A DNA stretch of 37,632 bases from an uncultured bacterium (lineage in GTDB: Bacteria > Bacillota_I > Bacilli_A > RFN20 > CAG-826). Position numbers and translations under genes: made by a program. The notes beneath the pieces were generated by a model. That model searched no databases and was not told the DNA's origin. It saw only the letters and a list, made by a program, of their open reading frames with translations. Positions within the stretch are counted from its first letter, which is position 1. Each line of letters begins with the position of its first letter. This document shows positions 10,972 through 18,914 of the stretch, in pieces. The stretch spans positions 1 through 37,632 of the forward strand of contig CASFSS010000002.1 of NCBI GenBank assembly GCA_949297445.1, written 5' to 3'.

Positions 10972-11082
10972 GCGGATAATTTGAGGATAACACCGCATGT
11001 CCAAATAAGCATTTAGCTACAAGACCCATTTGGGTAACCTATTATTGGTTCAAAAATTCTCTCGCTGTTCGAGAGATTTTTT
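10972..11082 (+). ncRNA. tracrRNA of the type II-A CRISPR system
   Basis: TTGAGGATAACACCGC (10981-10996) is the exact complement of repeat positions 9-24. CCAAAT (11001-11006) pairs with repeat positions 1-6, with one G-U pair. The unpaired bases between them (GA in the repeat, ATGT in the tracrRNA) reproduce the bulge seen between lower and upper stems in S. pyogenes. Downstream come a short nexus-like hairpin (11008-11018), ACCC-ATTT-GGGT (11024-11035), AACC-loop-GGTT (11036-11050) and a terminator hairpin. The 5' end is inferred: a possible promoter is TTGTTT (10937-10942), 17 bp, GAAAAT (10960-10965), while TTGATT/GATAAT (10950-10955 / 10975-10980) would start inside the anti-repeat. Location between the sugar operon and cas9, on the same strand, fits type II-A. 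Confidence 0.88.
11058..11082 (+). terminator. Rho-independent terminator of the tracrRNA
   Basis: CTCTCG (11059-11064) and CGAGAG (11070-11075) form a perfect 6-bp stem with loop CTGTT, extended by a T-A pair, followed by a run of six T at 11077-11082. It forms the last hairpin of the tracrRNA and separates it from cas9, although some readthrough could feed the cas operon. Confidence 0.85.
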
Positions 11083-11117: not shown

Positions 11118-14100
11118 ATGGATGGAAAATATTATGTCGGTCTTGATATCGGCAGCGATTCAGTTGGTTGGGCAACAACCGATGAAAATTTTAATTTATT
11201 AAAATTACGTGGCAAAACAGCCTGGGGAGTCCGCCTTTTTGATGAAGCAAAAAGCGCTAAAGAAAGACGAACATTTCGGACTCAAAAACGTCGTTTGCGA
11301 AGAAGAAAATACCGCATTTATTTGTTGAATGAGTTTGTTTTTAAAGATGAAATAAACAAAATTGATCAATCTTTTTTCTTAAGAATGAGCGAATCAAATT
11401 ATGTAGTAGATGATAAAAGCGGAAAAGAAGAACATCGTTATCCGCTTTTTCTATCTAAAAAAGTGGAGCAAGAGTTTTATAAAAAGTATCCAACAATTTA
11501 TCATTTAAGAAAAGCACAACTAAATAACGACCCTGAAGCGTTTAAAGATTTAAGATATGTATATTTAACAATTCATCACATTATAAAAAAACGTGGCAAT
11601 TTTTTGCAAGAAGGCACCATCGATTTTAAAAGGATTGATAAAGATCTTGTCTTTCAATTGAATGATTCGTTTAGAAATATTGAAAATGCCGAGGACGTAT
11701 GTGACATTTTCACTTATACTATTTTAGAAAAAATTGTTGAGATTTTATTGTGTGACGAAACTAAAAACGCTAAAAAGAAGCTTATTAAAGAATTGCTCAA
11801 TAATGATGTTATAAATGATGATGCGATAAAAAATTATATCGAGATGTTTATAACTATCATCGTCGGCGGAACATACGATTTAAATAAATTATCGGAAGAA
11901 AAAAATGACGATTTAAAGAAATTAACATTTGACTCAAATTATGATGACAACTATTCGATGTTTGAAGCCGCTTTAGGAGACAATATTCTTATTGTTGATT
12001 TAGCAAAAACAATTTTTGATTTTGCTTCAATCAAGAAAATACTTGGCGACGATATTTATCTTTCGGATGCAATGGTAAAGGTTTACGAAAAACATCGCGA
12101 CGAATTAAAAACATTAAAACGTTTATTAAATAGTGTAGATGAAGCAAATAATGATAAAAATAGAACCATTTATAAAAGCGTTTTTCAAATCATCAAACAA
12201 GATATTCCTTCCGATGATGATGGTGATGGAAAAGAAGAAAAAACTATTTCAAATTACGCTTGGTTCATCGCTAAACCTAGCAAAAATTCAAACGCCGATT
12301 TCAACAAATACATTCGTGCTACTTTACAAAAAATTAGCGACGAAAATATTAAAAATAGTGCCGATTTCAAAACAATCGAAAAATTAGTGGCGAACAATGA
12401 ATTGTTAAGAAGAATATCCGATGTAAAAGATAGTAAATTTCCTCATCAATTACATGAAAAAGAATTAGAACTTATTATAGATAATGCGAGCCAGTATTAT
12501 CCGTTCTTAAAGGATAAAAAAGATAAAATATTGTCTATATTTAAATTTAGGATTAATTATTACGAAGGTCCGTTAGATGACCGATCGTCTTATTCTAATG
12601 TTTGTCGCTTATCAAACGACAAAATATATCCATGGAATAAAGACCATATTATAGATAGCGATAGAACAAAACAAAATTTCATTCGTAAATTGACTAATTA
12701 TTGTACTTATTTGGTAGGTGAGCATGTTTTGCCTCAGGATTCCATAATATTTACTGATTTTGTTAATCTTAATCGTCTTAACACAATGATTATTAATGGT
12801 TCGCAGATATCTCAAGATATAAAACTTGATTTATTCGATAACTTAATCAATAAAAGAGCTAAAGTAACGCTTAAACAGATAGAAAAGTATCTAAAAAAAT
12901 ATGAAGTTTATAAGCAGGATGGTGTTAATATTTCGGGGATTAATTCCGAAGATACATTTGGCAACCCGGCGCGTTCAATTTTAGGATCGGTTTTCGATTT
13001 GAATGATAGCGAAATTATTAAAAAGTTAGATGAAGATGTAATTTCAATTTTGGCAATTTATGGAAGCGATGGCAAAAAAGACGCAATTGATTATATTTGG
13101 AAACACAATAAACAGTTTAGTGAAGAACAAATTAAAGCAATCAAGAAGTTGAATTGTAAGAAATGGGGGACTTTATCCATGCGCCTTCTTACAGGAATTA
13201 GATGTGTTGATTCTATGGGTGTTGTTTCAAATTCCATCATCGAACTATTGCACGATACAACTAAAAATTTCCAACAAATTTTGAATGATAGTGAATATAA
13301 TTTTTTAAATCTAATTCGAAAAGAAAATAAAAATGCGCAAGGCAATCTAACCAATAAACAGCGAATTGAAGAAATTATTGAAAACGCCCCACCGATGATG
13401 CGGCGACCAACCATTCAAGCGTATCGAATAGTTAAAGAGATACAAAAAGTGGCTAAATCTTCCCCGGACAAAATATGCATAGAAGTAACAAGAACCAATA
13501 AAGACAAAAATAAGGGCAAAATGTCAAATTCAAGGCGAAAAGAACTAGAGAATTTTCTTGCTCCAATTCAAAAAGATGCAAAAGACTTATTTAGTAAAGA
13601 TGCCAAAGAATTGTTAGGGGAACTTAACAATGTTACGGATGATTTAAAATTAAAGGGGCGACATCTTTATTTGTATTTTAAACAACTCGGTTATGATTTA
13701 TATACTGGCAAAAAAATCGATATAAATGATGTTTTGAATTCTAACAAATATGATACCGATCATATTATTCCTCAAAGTAAAATAAAAGACGATTCTTTAG
13801 ATAATCTTGTTCTTGTTAATAAACATGATAATCAAGTGCTTAAAGGTGATAGATACCCACTTCCTGAAACAATACAAAATAATGAAGAAGTTCAAAAACT
13901 TTGGAAATATTTGAAAATTAAAAATCAAATTTCTGATAAAAAGTATAATAACTTAATTAGAAAAACACCTTTAAGTGATGATGAATTAAATGAATTTGTT
14001 CATCGTCAAATAAATGTGGTTAACCACGCAAACAAAGTATTAAAAGATATTTTAGAAATTGCATTTCCAAAGGCTGACATAATATTTTCAAAGGCTGAAA

Positions 14101-15152
14101 ATGCAACATATTTAAGAAAATATTTAGATATTATTAAATTGCGCGAACTGAATGACGCTCACCACGCGGTTGACGCATATTTAAATGTAGTTGCCGGAAC
14201 AATTTTAGAGTCGCATTTTAATGCAAGAAGTAAAATGCCTCTTGAAAAGCAAAAATATACATACAATCCAGAAAGAGCTCTTGAATATCATATCGAAAAA
14301 GCCGATATTGCTAAAAAAATACAAAAAATATGTGATGGCCAAGATATGTTATTTACGCAACGGGAACAATATCCCGATGATGCTTTCTATGGACAAACTG
14401 TTTTACCTAAAAAGGACTTCCCGAATGAATTAGTGCCGCTTCATACATCTGGCGTCTTGTCAGATGTGACTAAATATGGTGGTTATAATAACTTAGCTAG
14501 GTCATATTTTATGGTTGGAATCAACAGGAAAAAAGAAAAAGTTTTGATTGATGTTCCAATTTTGTATACAAAACTTTATAAAGACAAAGAACAATTAAAA
14601 GAAAAAACATTGGAATATTTTGGTGAAAGAATAGAATTGATTCCAAATGTTATCATTAATCCAAAAACCATTGTGTCGATTGACGATGTTTGCTATTTGA
14701 TAACGCCAAGCAATAGAAAGCAAATCTCTTTAACTCTATTTGATCAACTTTTTTTGAATAAAGAGCTAGTTGGGAAAATAAAAGTAATTATAAAAAAGCA
14801 AACCGACAAAGACAATTTTATCGCTACTAAATTATGTGATGAAGACATAAAGAAGAGGTCTGAAGAAAATTTAAATATCTATAAGACACTTCTAGAATGC
14901 GCGGCTAGTAGGAAATATGCTTCTTATAATTTATTTAAAAATTATCGGACAAATATTGATTCATTGTTAGAAAGTTTTGGAAAAATGTCAATTAACGAGC
15001 AAGAAATTCAAATTATTAAATTATTAAAATTATTTAATCGCTCCTCTGGATTAGCACATTTTCTTTTGTCAAAAAATAAAGTTTTTGAAAATAACACTGC
15101 CATCATCAAAACTTCTATCACTGGTTTATTTGAAAAAAAGATTAAACTATAA
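11118..15152 (+). CDS. cas9: CRISPR-associated endonuclease Cas9 (type II-A)
   Basis: The 1344-residue effector cleaves DNA guided by crRNA:tracrRNA. RuvC-I is YYVGLDIGSDSVGWA with Asp10. The arginine-rich bridge helix is at about 55-75 (RTFRTQKRRLRRRKYRIYLL). RuvC-II is ICIEVTR with Glu789. The HNH nickase motif is YDTDHIIPQS with His882, followed by Asn896 and Asn905, corresponding to N854 and N863 of S. pyogenes. RuvC-III is HHAVDAYLN with His1016 and Asp1019. All nuclease residues are therefore intact. Length matches canonical II-A enzymes (about 1350-1400). The recognition lobe and C-terminal PAM-interacting domain are divergent, so the PAM cannot be predicted. Ribosome binding site AAAGGA (11103-11108) supports the start. 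The stop is followed immediately by the cas1 ATG, giving a tight cas9-cas1-cas2-csn2 operon. Confidence 0.97.
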   Translation: MDGKYYVGLDIGSDSVGWATTDENFNLLKLRGKTAWGVRLFDEAKSAKERRTFRTQKRRLRRRKYRIYLLNEFVFKDEINKIDQSFFLRMSESNYVVDDKSGKEEHRYPLFLSKKVEQEFYKKYPTIYHLRKAQLNNDPEAFKDLRYVYLTIHHIIKKRGNFLQEGTIDFKRIDKDLVFQLNDSFRNIENAEDVCDIFTYTILEKIVEILLCDETKNAKKKLIKELLNNDVINDDAIKNYIEMFITIIVGGTYDLNKLSEEKNDDLKKLTFDSNYDDNYSMFEAALGDNILIVDLAKTIFDFASIKKILGDDIYLSDAMVKVYEKHRDELKTLKRLLNSVDEANNDKNRTIYKSVFQIIKQDIPSDDDGDGKEEKTISNYAWFIAKPSKNSNADFNKYIRATLQKISDENIKNSADFKTIEKLVANNELLRRISDVKDSKFPHQLHEKELELIIDNASQYYPFLKDKKDKILSIFKFRINYYEGPLDDRSSYSNVCRLSNDKIYPWNKDHIIDSDRTKQNFIRKLTNYCTYLVGEHVLPQDSIIFTDFVNLNRLNTMIINGSQISQDIKLDLFDNLINKRAKVTLKQIEKYLKKYEVYKQDGVNISGINSEDTFGNPARSILGSVFDLNDSEIIKKLDEDVISILAIYGSDGKKDAIDYIWKHNKQFSEEQIKAIKKLNCKKWGTLSMRLLTGIRCVDSMGVVSNSIIELLHDTTKNFQQILNDSEYNFLNLIRKENKNAQGNLTNKQRIEEIIENAPPMMRRPTIQAYRIVKEIQKVAKSSPDKICIEVTRTNKDKNKGKMSNSRRKELENFLAPIQKDAKDLFSKDAKELLGELNNVTDDLKLKGRHLYLYFKQLGYDLYTGKKIDINDVLNSNKYDTDHIIPQSKIKDDSLDNLVLVNKHDNQVLKGDRYPLPETIQNNEEVQKLWKYLKIKNQISDKKYNNLIRKTPLSDDELNEFVHRQINVVNHANKVLKDILEIAFPKADIIFSKAENATYLRKYLDIIKLRELNDAHHAVDAYLNVVAGTILESHFNARSKMPLEKQKYTYNPERALEYHIEKADIAKKIQKICDGQDMLFTQREQYPDDAFYGQTVLPKKDFPNELVPLHTSGVLSDVTKYGGYNNLARSYFMVGINRKKEKVLIDVPILYTKLYKDKEQLKEKTLEYFGERIELIPNVIINPKTIVSIDDVCYLITPSNRKQISLTLFDQLFLNKELVGKIKVIIKKQTDKDNFIATKLCDEDIKKRSEENLNIYKTLLECAASRKYASYNLFKNYRTNIDSLLESFGKMSINEQEIQIIKLLKLFNRSSGLAHFLLSKNKVFENNTAIIKTSITGLFEKKIKL

Positions 15153-16028
15153 ATGGCATTTAGGACTCTTGTAATCTCATCGCATTCTAAAATAGAGTAT
15201 TCATTAAATTATTTTGTTTTTAGAAATGCGGAAGGCGTCAAAAGAGTTCACTTAGATGAAGTATCGACTGTAATATTTGAAAGCACCAATATTTCTATAA
15301 CATCTAGCATACTTGTTGAAATGCTAAAAAGGAAAATTAATATTATTTTTTGCGATGAAAAGCATAATCCTTTAGGGCAACTGTCTTTGCTCAGCGGTGC
15401 GCATAATAATTACAAACGGATAGTGGAACAGTTGAATTGGTCTAATAAAACCAAGGAGCTTCTGTGGCAAGAGATAATTAAGCACAAAATTATTTCCGAA
15501 GCAGAAACATTAAAAAAATATAATTTAAGCGAAAAATCTAATTTATTACTTTCGTATGCAGCTGAGGTGCAAGAAAACGATTGTACAAATAGAGAAGGAC
15601 ATGCTGCGAAGGTATATTTCAACTGCATTTTTTATGAAGGATTTTCAAGAGGCGATGATTCCAAAATAAATATATTTTTGAATTATGGTTATTCAATTTT
15701 ACTTTCGCTATTTAATCGAGCAGTTGTTGCTGGTGGTTATTTGACACAATTAGGCATTCATCATAAAAACGAATATAACCAATTTAATTTTTCATGCGAC
15801 TGTATGGAACCATTTAGGGTTTTAGTTGATCAATTTGCAAAGCAAATGTATTTAGAAAACGAAGCAAATAAAGATAAAATGCTTGATTTGCTTAAATGTG
15901 AAATATCTATATGTGGCAAAATGCAAACCTTAAACAATGCTATCATTATTTATACAAATTCTATTTTTGATTCATTAAATAATAATGATGTGGGAAAGAT
16001 TAAATTTCCAGATTCGTATGCTTTATAG
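15153..16028 (+). CDS. cas1: CRISPR integrase Cas1 (type II)
   Basis: The 291-residue protein catalyses spacer integration as part of the Cas1-Cas2 complex. The metal-binding triad typical of the family is visible: Glu148 (in NREGHAAKVYF), His204 (in GIHHKNEYN) and Glu219 (in DCMEPFRVLVD). These line up with E149, H205 and E220 of S. pyogenes Cas1. The N-terminal beta domain and C-terminal helical domain have the expected length. The ATG follows the cas9 stop with no gap, and the end overlaps cas2, so translation is coupled. Confidence 0.96.
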   Translation: MAFRTLVISSHSKIEYSLNYFVFRNAEGVKRVHLDEVSTVIFESTNISITSSILVEMLKRKINIIFCDEKHNPLGQLSLLSGAHNNYKRIVEQLNWSNKTKELLWQEIIKHKIISEAETLKKYNLSEKSNLLLSYAAEVQENDCTNREGHAAKVYFNCIFYEGFSRGDDSKINIFLNYGYSILLSLFNRAVVAGGYLTQLGIHHKNEYNQFNFSCDCMEPFRVLVDQFAKQMYLENEANKDKMLDLLKCEISICGKMQTLNNAIIIYTNSIFDSLNNNDVGKIKFPDSYAL

Positions 16029-16338
16029 ATTTATGCGCATTATTTTATTTTTTGATCTCCCATCAGTATCTAGAAAAGAAAAAAGAGAATATCAAAAATT
16101 TGTGAAATATATAAAAGAAGAAGGATTTTCAATGTTTCAAGAAAGTGTATACACAAAGTTGTGTTTGAATGAAACTGTCGTGGAATCAACAATGAAAAAT
16201 ATTAAATCTAACATTCCGAAAGACGGTTTTATTTCTTGCTTGTCTTTAACAGAAAAGCAATTTTCTTCAATTGAATGTTTACTTGGCGACTTCAAGTCAG
16301 ATGTTATTATATCCGATGAAAGAATAATTAAATTATGA
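16018..16338 (+). CDS. cas2: CRISPR adaptation protein Cas2
   Basis: ATG 16018 overlaps the cas1 stop by 11 bases and gives a 106-residue protein starting MLYRFMRIILFFDLPSVSRK. Type II-A Cas2 proteins commonly begin with a similar RYRFMRMILMFDMP segment, so this start is preferred over the frame's earlier start at 15985 or the ATG at 16033. The ferredoxin-like fold with the FFDLP strand (Asp14) and the QESVYTKLCLN segment match the family. It dimerises as the scaffold for Cas1. Confidence 0.94.
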   Translation: MLYRFMRIILFFDLPSVSRKEKREYQKFVKYIKEEGFSMFQESVYTKLCLNETVVESTMKNIKSNIPKDGFISCLSLTEKQFSSIECLLGDFKSDVIISDERIIKL

Positions 16339-17012
16339 AACAATTGCAAATTGATTATTTTCAAGAACCAATAAATTTGGAAGTCGGCTATTTTTATAAT
16401 TTTGTCGTTGAAAACATCGATTTATTTAGAAAAATATATTGGTCCCTTTTTACAGAATTTGAATTTGACGACATACCAATTAAAATTTTAGATGACAATA
16501 ATTTTCAAGCACATTTTGATGAATTATGTTGCCCTATTACAAATATATTAAATACCGATTTAAATTCTAAAAAGAATCTTAACATCTTAAATAAAATATT
16601 TAAGAAAACATATTACGGAAGTTTAGATGATGATATTGTGTCATTAAAAAATAAGGCAAAAGAAATAGTAAATAATATATCACTAGATTTAGATATTCCG
16701 ATTGCTGTCAATAACGATATATCCACAGATGATTTATTTAAGTTATTTAATGTTCGTTTTATTGATGAAAAAGAGAATTTATTAGAATCTTTTATAAATT
16801 TTGTAAAGGTCATTTCCGAGTTGCAACAAAAAAATATATTTATCGTTGTGCATTTAAAAGAGTTTTTTACAAAAAACGAATTAGAAACATTGATAAAAGA
16901 AACATCTTATAGACAAATAATTTTCATAAATATCGAGACTAATAATTTGGGTGAAAAAATTACCGATGAAAAAACAATTATTATCGATAAAGACTATTGC
17001 GTATTGAATTGA
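16335..17012 (+). CDS. csn2: Csn2-family adaptation protein (divergent)
   Basis: The 225-residue protein has the length of canonical Csn2 (about 220). It shares the family's overall pattern: a start like QIDYFQEPINLEVGYFYNFV, a central helical region rich in D/E and K, the FVKVISELQQKNIFIVVHLKEFF strand-helix segment, and the ending IIIDKDYCVLN, similar to the LDEDYFLI-type end in S. pyogenes. Csn2 forms tetrameric rings that bind DNA ends during spacer acquisition. The ATG overlaps the cas2 stop (ATGA). Position as the fourth gene between cas2 and the leader defines subtype II-A. Sequence similarity is weak, so the call relies on position, length and pattern. Confidence 0.85.
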   Translation: MKQLQIDYFQEPINLEVGYFYNFVVENIDLFRKIYWSLFTEFEFDDIPIKILDDNNFQAHFDELCCPITNILNTDLNSKKNLNILNKIFKKTYYGSLDDDIVSLKNKAKEIVNNISLDLDIPIAVNNDISTDDLFKLFNVRFIDEKENLLESFINFVKVISELQQKNIFIVVHLKEFFTKNELETLIKETSYRQIIFINIETNNLGEKITDEKTIIIDKDYCVLN

Positions 17013-17062
17013 AAAATATAAAATGTAAGTAGGATTACACCAAAAACAAACCTTTATTTGAG
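16997..17062 (+). promoter_or_regulatory. CRISPR leader with candidate promoter and ATTTGAG anchor
   Basis: Only 50 bp (17013-17062) separate csn2 from the first repeat. The leader ends in ATTTGAG (17056-17062), the leader-anchoring sequence known from many type II-A loci such as S. thermophilus, and it directs Cas1-Cas2 integration at the first repeat. A candidate promoter is TTGCGT (16997-17002), 16 bp, TAAAAT (17019-17024), partly inside csn2. The degenerate repeat at the far end of the array confirms that this is the leader side. Confidence 0.75.
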
Positions 17063-18675
17063 GTTTGGGAGCGGTGTTATCCTCAATAGCTCTCCAACTT
17101 AGTCGCGCCAAGACGTAGAATAGTACTAGTTTGGGAGCGGTGTTATCCTCAATAGCTCTCCAACTACCGGCGCTCCATTCTCTTTGGCTTGTCAGTTTGG
17201 GAGCGGTGTTATCCTCAATAGCTCTCCAACTTCGATTGAGGTATAGTCAACTTTATAGTTGTTTGGGAGCGGTGTTATCCTCAATAGCTCTCCAACTTGA
17301 TGTGTCTTTATATTGTTTGAATCCTGGTTTGGGAGCGGTGTTATCCTCAATAGCTCTCCAACGCGAAGAAATAAAAAATTCTGGTTCAACAAGTTTGGGA
17401 GCGGTGTTATCCTCAATAGCTCTCCAACTCGAGCACGAAATTAATGTTGAGGATGTCGGTTTGGGAGCGGTGTTATCCTCAATAGCTCTCCAACATCTCC
17501 TCCAACCATTTGATAGCCTTGGTGGTTTGGGAGCGGTGTTATCCTCAATAGCTCTCCAACCTTGGCTTTAAATAGTGTCGATAAGTCATTGTTTGGGAGC
17601 GGTGTTATCCTCAATAGCTCTCCAACTGGGCGATCGTTAGTTTTACAGTTTGGGAGGGTTTGGGAGCGGTGTTATCCTCAATAGCTCTCCAACGTTAGAA
17701 CCTGTGAAAAGCGAGGTATTGGAGTTTGGGAGCGGTGTTATCCTCAATAGCTCTCCAACTATTTTATAAAATCCGAAAAAACACTATTAGTTTGGGAGCG
17801 GTGTTATCCTCAATAGCTCTCCAACTTATCTTCTTTAACTGCTTTATTTTCTATAGTTTGGGAGCGGTGTTATCCTCAATAGCTCTCCAACAAAAGCAAA
17901 GAAAGTTCGCAAAACTCTACGGTTTGGGAGCGGTGTTATCCTCAATAGCTCTCCAACTTTTCCTTTACTTGCATATAGAGATGTCGGGTTTGGGAGCGGT
18001 GTTATCCTCAATAGCTCTCCAACCTTCTTGAACAAAACTAGGAGCAAGATTCGGTTTGGGAGCGGTGTTATCCTCAATAGCTCTCCAACTGATTCGTAAC
18101 AGTTAAATGCTTTTCCATAGTTTGGGAGCGGTGTTATCCTCAATAGCTCTCCAACCTCGGCATCTAACTAACTCGAACATTCATGGTTTGGGAGCGGTGT
18201 TATCCTCAATAGCTCTCCAACTGAACACGAGCAGCGATAGAAGCTTTGCCAGTTTGGGAGCGGTGTTATCCTCAATAGCTCTCCAACGGCAAAACTTTTT
18301 AAGTGCATCAACTTATAGTTTGGGAGCGGTGTTATCCTCAATAGCTCTCCAACAAAGGTTGTAAGTAAGTATATATAAAAGTAGTTTGGGAGCGGTGTTA
18401 TCCTCAATAGCTCTCCAACACCCTCTTTTATAGACAACTTAACTTTAGAGTTTGGGAGCGGTGTTATCCTCAATAGCTCTCCAACGATCAACTCATAAAC
18501 CAAAAGAGAACTCGAGTTTGGGAGCGGTGTTATCCTCAATAGCTCTCCAACATAATACTTTTGATAATGTCCCTTCTCTTTGTTTGGGAGCGGTGTTATC
18601 CTCAATAGCTCTCCAACATATATTACCTCAGAGTTATTAATCGACCAGTTTGGGAGCGGTGTTATCCTCAATAGC
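17063..18675 (+). CRISPR. CRISPR array, 25 repeats (last truncated), 24 spacers
   Basis: The 36-bp repeat begins GTTTGGGAGCGGTGTTATCC and ends TCAATAGCTCTCCAAC. Its ends are partly palindromic (8 of 10 bases). The first copy is 17063-17098, and starts recur every 66 bp to 17591, then 17658, then every 66 bp from 17724 to 18582. All 24 full copies look identical. Spacers are 30 bp, except the ninth (17627-17657), which is 31 bp. The last repeat (18648-18675) keeps only its first 28 bases. Transcription is to the right from the leader at 17013-17062. All spacers differ from each other. No credible protospacer lies in this window. Confidence 0.99.
18648..18675 (+). repeat. Truncated terminal CRISPR repeat
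   Basis: This copy matches repeat positions 1-28 exactly, then runs into ATAAATTTTT in place of TCTCCAAC. Loss at the leader-distal end is the normal sign of the oldest repeat and sets the array orientation. Confidence 0.95.
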
Positions 18676-18914
18676 ATAAATTTTTGTGCATCGGTGTTTG
18701 TTCTTAAAAGTTTGAAACACATGCAATCTTTCTTCTTACAAAAACAAGAAGTGAAGTTTTTTAACGACATAATTTCAACAAGTGTTGATTATTTAACAAT
18801 TTTGATTTGCACTCTGTCGAAAAAAGATTTAATAACTTTTTATATCTTGTGAATATATGTTTTATATCATATATAATAGTTTTCATGCAGGGTTTGTTTG
18901 AGGTGTAACTAACT
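18676..18914. other. Non-coding spacer between CRISPR array and ABC operon
   Basis: There is no convincing gene. CTTCTT (18732-18737) and AAGAAG (18746-18751) can form a weak stem followed by TTTTTT five bases later, a possible array terminator. TCAACA-AG-TGTTGA (18775-18788) is a perfect inverted repeat of operator size. A likely -10 TATAAT lies at 18872-18877, with TTGTGA at 18847-18852 as a poorly spaced -35 (19 bp). GAGGTG (18900-18905) is the ribosome binding site of the following gene. Confidence 0.5.

What the first reader, a model, noticed from the sequence alone, without database searches (positions are those of the whole stretch)
17627..17657. Aberrant ninth spacer ending in a copy of the repeat start
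This is the only 31-bp spacer. Its last ten bases are GTTTGGGAGG, and the true repeat then begins GTTTGGGAGC, so nine bases of the repeat start are duplicated in tandem. Only 21 bases are unique. It could record imprecise integration, slippage during repeat duplication, or a spacer captured from a CRISPR repeat end. The crRNA would carry a repeat-like tail next to the real repeat and may be poorly functional.
Basis: seen in the sequence. Interest (0 to 1): 0.5.

Follow-up and report, generated by a model that had tools for sequence, protein, structure and literature searches.

The report
CRISPR spacer ending in repeat copy
One of 24 stored memory pieces in a bacterial CRISPR array ends in a nine-letter copy of the array's own repeat, most likely because the machinery captured a scrap of its own array, or else by coincidence; it is a curiosity of an otherwise ordinary Cas9 system.

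Summary
Spacer 9 (17627-17657) is the only 31-bp spacer of 24: 21 unique bases, then GTTTGGGAG (nine bases of the repeat start), then G; intact repeats lie on both sides. The array belongs to a type II-A cas9-cas1-cas2-csn2 locus. A tracrRNA candidate on the + strand (10977-11081) indicates that crRNAs read left to right, so the repeat copy would be the seed end of the guide.

The length is not aberrant: 35 of 296 spacers in 14 family arrays are 31 bp, and 105 of 399 in S. mutans (PMC8265633). As the copy fits inside a normal length, slippage adding to a normal spacer is unlikely; it was probably in the prespacer when captured.

Best reading (0.45): a 30-bp prespacer from a spacer-repeat junction of this or a sibling array, or from an unfinished integration, plus one extra G. 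Main rival (0.35): a foreign protospacer matching by chance. No source was found: no exact match in IMG/VR or GTDB contigs, chance-level hits in phages and plasmids, only four 3-mismatch relatives in 278 other genomes of the order. Predicted crRNA:tracrRNA pairing is normal, so "poorly functional" is not supported on that ground.

The parts
17627..17647 (+). spacer 9, unique 21 bases (TGGGCGATCGTTAGTTTTACA)
   Evidence: only one copy in the own genome with up to 3 mismatches
17648..17656 (+). spacer 9, nine-base copy of the repeat start (GTTTGGGAG)
17657..17657 (+). 31st base G; could be a copy of the leader's last base or of the repeat's first base (inferred)
   Evidence: (31-mers end in G more often); precedent for extra bases at the opposite spacer end in PMC8265633
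17591..17626 (+). repeat 9 (upstream of spacer 9), intact
17658..17693 (+). repeat 10 (downstream of spacer 9), intact
17063..18683 (+). CRISPR array: 24 intact repeats, 24 spacers, degenerate last repeat from 18648
17013..17062 (+). leader (inferred); ends ATTTGAG directly before repeat 1. 10 of the 14 arrays surveyed (window included) have TTTGAG at this edge
10977..11081 (+). predicted tracrRNA: anti-repeat 10981-10996 (16 of 16 to repeat bases 9-24) plus TCCAAAT 11000-11006, hairpins, terminator-like hairpin about 11059-11075 followed by T
   Evidence: the only Rfam match here was MicX, 21.5 bits against a gathering score of 75, E=0.3, taken as chance
11118..15152 (+). cas9 (1344 aa)
   Evidence: TIGR01865 E=3.5e-204
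15153..16028 (+). cas1
   Evidence: TIGR03639 (type II) E=3.5e-82
15985..16338 (+). cas2 (start as listed mechanically; the domain match begins at residue 17, so the true start may be later)
   Evidence: TIGR01573 E=6.1e-19
16335..17012 (+). csn2, marks subtype II-A
   Evidence: TIGR01866 E=1.1e-32

Best explanation
Spacer 9 is a normally sized type II-A spacer whose prespacer already contained the repeat start. Most likely the adaptation machinery (Cas1-Cas2 with Csn2 and Cas9) captured a 30-bp piece spanning a spacer-repeat junction: the last 21 bases of some spacer plus the first nine bases of the next repeat. The source could be this array before a spacer was lost, a sibling cell's array, or an unfinished integration in which a new spacer was joined to the repeat on one side only. 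It was inserted at the leader with one extra G, by attack one base early or by copying one base. Shown: the sequence, the II-A genes, the normal total length, and that the assembly holds no other copy of the 21 bases. Predicted: the tracrRNA and hence the reading direction. Inferred: the source, the intermediate and the extra-base step. The crRNA should load normally; it probably recognises no invader.
For: The nine bases start exactly where a repeat would start after 21 bases of spacer, and both neighbouring repeats are intact. The total length falls in the normal classes (254 of 296 at 30, 35 at 31), which points to presence in the prespacer rather than later insertion. None of the other 295 spacers surveyed has more than a 5-nt overlap with its repeat start, and none of 29,600 shuffles reached 9. 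31-mers end in G more often than 30-mers in family arrays: 8 of 20 against 35 of 241, Fisher p=0.0078, with one array of uncertain repeat edge (L062) left out and two spacers before degenerate last repeats put back; 13 of 36 against 38 of 255, p=0.0040, with L062 (exploratory; one search gives it without the two spacers). This fits one extra G at the leader side in some of them. Extra bases at the other spacer end are documented: 27 spacers of 31 bp in S. mutans had a 30-bp perfect match plus a C at the first position, which the authors relate to copying of the repeat; 2 of 399 spacers there matched the host genome, without a proper PAM (PMC8265633). [quoted passage not shown] coli (PMC10011333, passage), self-derived spacers from break-prone loci in a II-A model (PMC8034620, figure legend), breaks expected when replication meets an unfinished integration (PMC8390005, passage).
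Against: No spacer ending in the 21 bases was found: own genome up to 3 mismatches, the order, IMG/VR exact, GTDB contigs exact. 31-mers end in A at least as often as in G (16 against 13 of 36), so an extra G cannot explain most of them. The PAM is unknown: the array model predicts CGGTGTTA after the protospacer, while the only credited protospacer of this array (spacer 18, 28 of 30) is followed by TGAATTTT; n=1, no test. Self capture of array DNA must be rare a priori, so chance similarity is not much less likely. A spacer of an unrelated array also carries this motif.
Confidence: 0.45

Rival explanations
1. Ordinary foreign spacer: a phage or plasmid protospacer happened to end in GTTTGGGAGG.
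For: Normal length class. The other spacers mostly have no known source either (one credited candidate among 24), so absence of a hit says little. A first-stage scan of many windows will meet such coincidences. An unrelated array with 66-base spacing in a Hyphomicrobiales record carries a spacer beginning GTTTGGGAGGGTTTGGGAG (L072), so the motif occurs in ordinary spacers.
Against: About 1e-4 for this array. The match sits exactly at the junction. No protospacer: 0 IMG/VR contigs for the 21-mer or for a 21-mer spanning the join, only chance-level hits of the 31-mer in phages and plasmids.
Confidence: 0.35
2. Integration or gap-repair error: part of the repeat start was copied again when the repeat was duplicated, replacing or adding to the spacer end.
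For: One- and two-base additions related to the repeat are proposed in S. mutans (PMC8265633). In S. thermophilus the second integration site is set by a ruler-like element of the repeat (PMC6895254, passages), so misplacement is conceivable.
Against: Additions lengthen the spacer; here the unique part is 21 and the total 31, which needs a short prespacer plus a compensating copy. No spacer longer than 32 among 296.
Confidence: 0.12
3. Assembly or sequencing artefact in a repetitive array.
For: Reads were not available; the genome is in 18 contigs.
Against: All 24 repeats are intact, every other repeat-spacer unit is exactly 66 bases, and both flanking repeats are perfect.
Confidence: 0.05

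Closest known systems
31-bp spacers with an extra repeat-related base in Streptococcus mutans P42S type II-A (PMC8265633, passages)
   Same: Type II-A, 30-bp norm with 31 bp as the second class, extra base that copies the repeat edge
   Different: There 1-2 extra bases at the spacer's first positions on top of a perfect 30-bp protospacer; here nine repeat bases lie inside the 30 at the other end, plus one G
Self-derived spacers (E. coli review PMC10011333; S. pyogenes II-A model PMC8034620; passages)
   Same: Spacer DNA taken from the cell's own chromosome, including near break-prone places and upstream of an array
   Different: Those map to identified chromosomal places; no source is found here
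FrCas9 type II-A locus of Faecalibaculum rodentium (PMC8931148, passages)
   Same: cas9, cas1, cas2 and csn2 beside the array, tracrRNA upstream of cas9, crRNAs in the direction of the cas genes
   Different: FrCas9's tracrRNA runs opposite to the cas genes, here it runs with them; relatedness to FrCas9 and a shared PAM were not tested

Membership tests
Type II-A CRISPR-Cas | cas9, cas1, cas2 and csn2 in one locus | tested here: met
   (all four above NCBIfam cut-offs)
Type II-A CRISPR-Cas | tracrRNA with anti-repeat to the array's repeat | tested here: met
   16 of 16 anti-repeat at 10981-10996 and predicted duplex, hairpins and terminator; transcription not tested
Type II-A CRISPR-Cas | leader-end motif at the cas-proximal side of the array | tested here: met
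   ATTTGAG before repeat 1; TTTGAG at this edge in 10 of 14 arrays surveyed; two of the other four are cut by a contig end. That the motif is a II-A leader signal is recalled
Self (array)-derived spacer | identified source at a spacer-repeat junction in the same or a sibling array | tested here: not met
   no second copy of the 21 bases in the own genome; in the order only four 3-mismatch relatives, with 6-9 mismatches in the next ten bases; sibling strains not available
Self (array)-derived spacer | repeat bases begin exactly at the spacer-repeat boundary | tested here: met
   nine bases GTTTGGGAG from repeat base 1
Self (array)-derived spacer | PAM beside the source | tested here: inconclusive
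   predicted flank CGGTGTTA; PAM unknown, one protospacer flank TGAATTTT
Foreign (phage or plasmid) spacer | matching protospacer in a mobile element | tested here: not met
   none above chance in these collections
Integration slippage product | repeat bases added on top of a full 30-bp spacer | tested here: not met
   unique part is 21 bp, total 31

The most novel reading that the evidence does not exclude
The spacer is a fossil of Cas1-Cas2 recapturing its own half-finished integration product (new spacer already joined to the repeat on one side), showing that abandoned intermediates feed back into adaptation; the extra G moves the guide by one base relative to the junction and would have spared the array from Cas9.
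Probability: 0.12. Interest if true: 0.5.

Novelty: new member of a known kind. Interest (0 to 1): 0.2.

Why it matters
If the array-junction origin is right, such spacers record that the integration site itself supplies prespacers in type II-A systems, and they would be an easy sequence signature to count across public arrays. If it is chance, it is one more ordinary spacer. The locus otherwise looks like a normal type II-A system.

Tried and rejected
Minus-strand transcription of the array was considered (the reverse complement of the repeat also resembles a II-A repeat, from recall); rejected because the 16-base anti-repeat, a TCCAAAT lower stem, hairpins and a terminator-like hairpin all read on + upstream of cas9, and the ATTTGAG edge is at the left.

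That 31 bp is an anomaly: rejected by the family survey and papers.

A slipped crRNA:tracrRNA register through the first GTTTGGG copy: -31.8 against -34.7 kcal/mol for the normal register, and -31.4 for one control spacer (number 10) with the lower stem blocked, so no advantage.

Protospacer and PAM search: the whole array was searched in phages, plasmids, the family and the order. I credited 1 of 24 spacers (number 18), in a prophage-like stretch of one family genome (E 2.3e-5 for one genome, 224 searched, so about 0.005 by chance). Other hits near spacers 12 and 13 were not credited: four were looked at or listed by sequence (L031-L033 read; G063 and similar not), they do not sit on the spacer edges or are AT-rich; the order hits in G257 and G269 were not read. 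All 8 IMG/VR scans found 0 contigs: the 21-mer (14), repeat start (15), spacer 18 with two ambiguous bases (47), spacer 10 (48), the 21-mer over the join (49), spacers 1 (58), 2 (59) and 7 (60); so only 6 of 24 spacers were tried there, as exact cores. The arrays of two relatives against phages gave four weak records (best E 0.1) and none. The PAM-interacting part of Cas9 against solved structures gave two unrelated weak hits, so no PAM was inferred from homology.

The four 3-mismatch relatives of the 21-mer in the order have 6-9 mismatches in the following ten bases: three read, the fourth (L196, lying on the other strand, misread).

One is a spacer of an unrelated array (L072); the other matches with repeated sequence around them sit mostly in short tandem repeats of 7-12-base units. 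It says nothing about this repeat family.

Paper searches touching on aberrant or array-derived spacers listed no paper that I recognised, from titles and starts of abstracts, as describing such a spacer; this is no claim that none is in print. No paper was read whole; passages were seen in PMC6895254, PMC8931148, PMC10011333, PMC8034620, PMC8390005 and PMC8265633.

Full report
What is there. The array at 17063-18683 has 24 intact, identical 36-bp repeats, a degenerate last repeat and 24 spacers, of which 23 are 30 bp; only spacer 9 (17627-17657) is 31 bp. It reads TGGGCGATCGTTAGTTTTACA, then GTTTGGGAG, then G, and the next repeat starts GTTTGGGAGC.

The locus. Upstream on the same strand are cas9, cas1, cas2 and csn2 (searches agree), so this is type II-A. 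A tracrRNA candidate lies before cas9 on the + strand: anti-repeat 10981-10996 matches 16 of 16 repeat bases, a TCCAAAT stretch can pair with the repeat's first seven bases, and hairpins and a terminator-like hairpin follow. crRNAs are therefore expected to read left to right, with the last 20 or so bases of each spacer as the guide (20 nt recalled from other Cas9 systems). For spacer 9 the repeat copy is the seed end. ATTTGAG precedes repeat 1; TTTGAG stands at this edge in 10 of the 14 arrays surveyed, window included; of the other four, two are cut by a contig end, one has CTTGAG and one has neither. New spacers thus probably enter at the left.

Is it more than chance? With the base composition of the window's own spacers the 9-mer has probability 2.2e-6 in one register and about 1e-4 over 24 spacers and two registers. 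I surveyed 21 stretches (the window and 20 loci from family genomes); arrays were found in 14, from 13 genomes, giving 296 spacers, 23 of them from the window. Lengths: 254 of 30, 35 of 31, 3 of 32, 3 of 29, 1 of 27. The survey left out spacers before degenerate last repeats: the window's spacer 24 (30 bp) and one 31-mer of L020; they are put back. One array (L062) had a 35-base repeat with an uncertain edge; another (L054) was read with a repeat typed by hand; orientations were set by the leader-like edge, or by likeness of the repeat where that was missing. The longest overlap of a spacer end (0-3 trailing bases ignored) with its own repeat start was 9 in spacer 9 and 5 or less in the other 295. 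Under the same rule 29,600 shuffles gave 8 three times and never 9. Because the finding was picked out by a reader, and the number of windows read is unknown, coincidence stays open.

Length argument. The unique part plus the copy add up to a normal length. In a S. pyogenes system most new spacers are 30-31 bp (PMC8034620, passage), in S. thermophilus 27-33 bp covers 99.9% (PMC6895254, passage), in S. mutans 279 of 399 are 30 bp and 105 are 31 bp (PMC8265633, passage). A later duplication of nine bases on a normal spacer would give 39-40 bp, and no surveyed spacer exceeds 32. The repeat-like end was thus most likely in the prespacer when it was measured and cut.

The 31st base. In the family arrays 31-mers end in G in 8 of 20 against 35 of 241 for 30-mers (Fisher p=0.0078, L062 left out; 13 of 36 against 38 of 255, p=0.0040, with it). 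One search gave p=0.0056 and 0.0033 before the two dropped spacers were put back, and 7 of 18 against 28 of 218, p=0.008, without L062 and the window. The edge before repeat 1 ends in G and the repeat begins with G, so some 31-mers may carry one extra G from the leader side. At least as many 31-mers end in A (9 of 20, or 16 of 36 with L062), so this is not the only cause. It was an exploratory test. In S. mutans 27 spacers of 31 bp had a perfect 30-bp match plus a C at the first position; the authors suggest an error in copying the repeat. If the G here is such an extra base, the remaining 30 bases fit a junction of an unknown 21-base spacer end and nine repeat bases with no mismatch.

Source. 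The 21 bases occur once in the own genome (up to 3 mismatches), and ACAGTTTGGGAGG once (up to 1 mismatch). There was no exact match of the 21-mer in IMG/VR or GTDB contigs, and none of a 21-mer spanning the join in IMG/VR. Phages and plasmids gave chance-level hits to the 31-mer. In 279 genomes of the order, the own included, four others have 3-mismatch relatives, all with 6-9 mismatches in the next ten bases. The source is thus unknown under every model.

PAM. Spacer 18 matches a stretch of genome G201 at 28 of 30 (E 2.3e-5 for one genome among 224 searched), among genes resembling phage ParB-like/methyltransferase, HNH endonuclease and helicase families; both differences are synonymous in the frame that reads AKLLSLLVF, and the 3' flank is TGAATTTT. 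The array model predicts CGGTGTTA for spacer 9. One diverged protospacer cannot define a PAM, so this neither supports nor refutes.

Function. Predicted pairing of the spacer 9 crRNA with the anti-repeat is -34.7 kcal/mol, as for the other spacers when the guide is kept free (-34.5 to -34.7); a slipped register is worse (-31.8) and about equal to a control with the lower stem blocked (-31.4). Loading should be normal; whether any invader carries the target is unknown. With the extra G the guide would meet the source junction one base out of register, which would have lowered self-cutting if a source existed; this is inference.

Literature on self capture. The review PMC10011333 (passages) places protospacer hotspots in E. 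[quoted passage not shown] PMC8034620 (legend) says self-derived spacers come most often from loci with frequent double-strand breaks. PMC8390005 (passage) says replication through the unfinished integration would produce breaks. In S. mutans 2 of 399 new spacers matched the host, without a proper PAM. None of these describes a spacer-repeat chimera in the passages I saw.

Verdict. A real oddity in an otherwise ordinary-looking type II-A array. Capture from an array junction or unfinished integration is favoured (0.45) over a chance foreign match (0.35); copying errors (0.12) and artefact (0.05) are less likely.

Noticed in passing
window 18222-18251 (spacer 18); L029 1501-1530: Spacer 18 matches 28 of 30 bases in a prophage-like stretch of another genome of the family; both differences are synonymous in the likely reading frame, 3' flank TGAATTTT.
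   Followed up: partly
window 10977-11081: tracrRNA candidate upstream of cas9, same strand as the cas genes; the only Rfam match there was MicX, far below its gathering score.
   Followed up: partly
window 18648-18683: The last repeat keeps its first 28 bases and then differs, as is usual at the trailer end (recalled).
   Followed up: no
L021 spacers 22 and 27: The same spacer (CAAACAAGATGACTATTTCTTCGCTATTTA) stands twice in the array of a relative.
   Followed up: no
L055 and L062: Two family arrays have more 31-bp spacers than the others: 7 of 33 in L055; 16 of 33 in L062, where the repeat edge may be misplaced.
   Followed up: no
L072 2496-2514 (minus strand): An unrelated array with about 66-base spacing in a Hyphomicrobiales record holds a spacer starting GTTTGGGAGGGTTTGGGAG, the same 19 bases as the spacer 9-repeat 10 join; probably coincidence.
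   Followed up: partly
G001 (same genus), L054: A genome of the same genus has a different, longer array with repeat GTTTAGGAGTGATGTTATCCTCAAGTGCTCTTAAAC; neither it nor the third genome of the genus has the window's repeat start at up to 1 mismatch.
   Followed up: no
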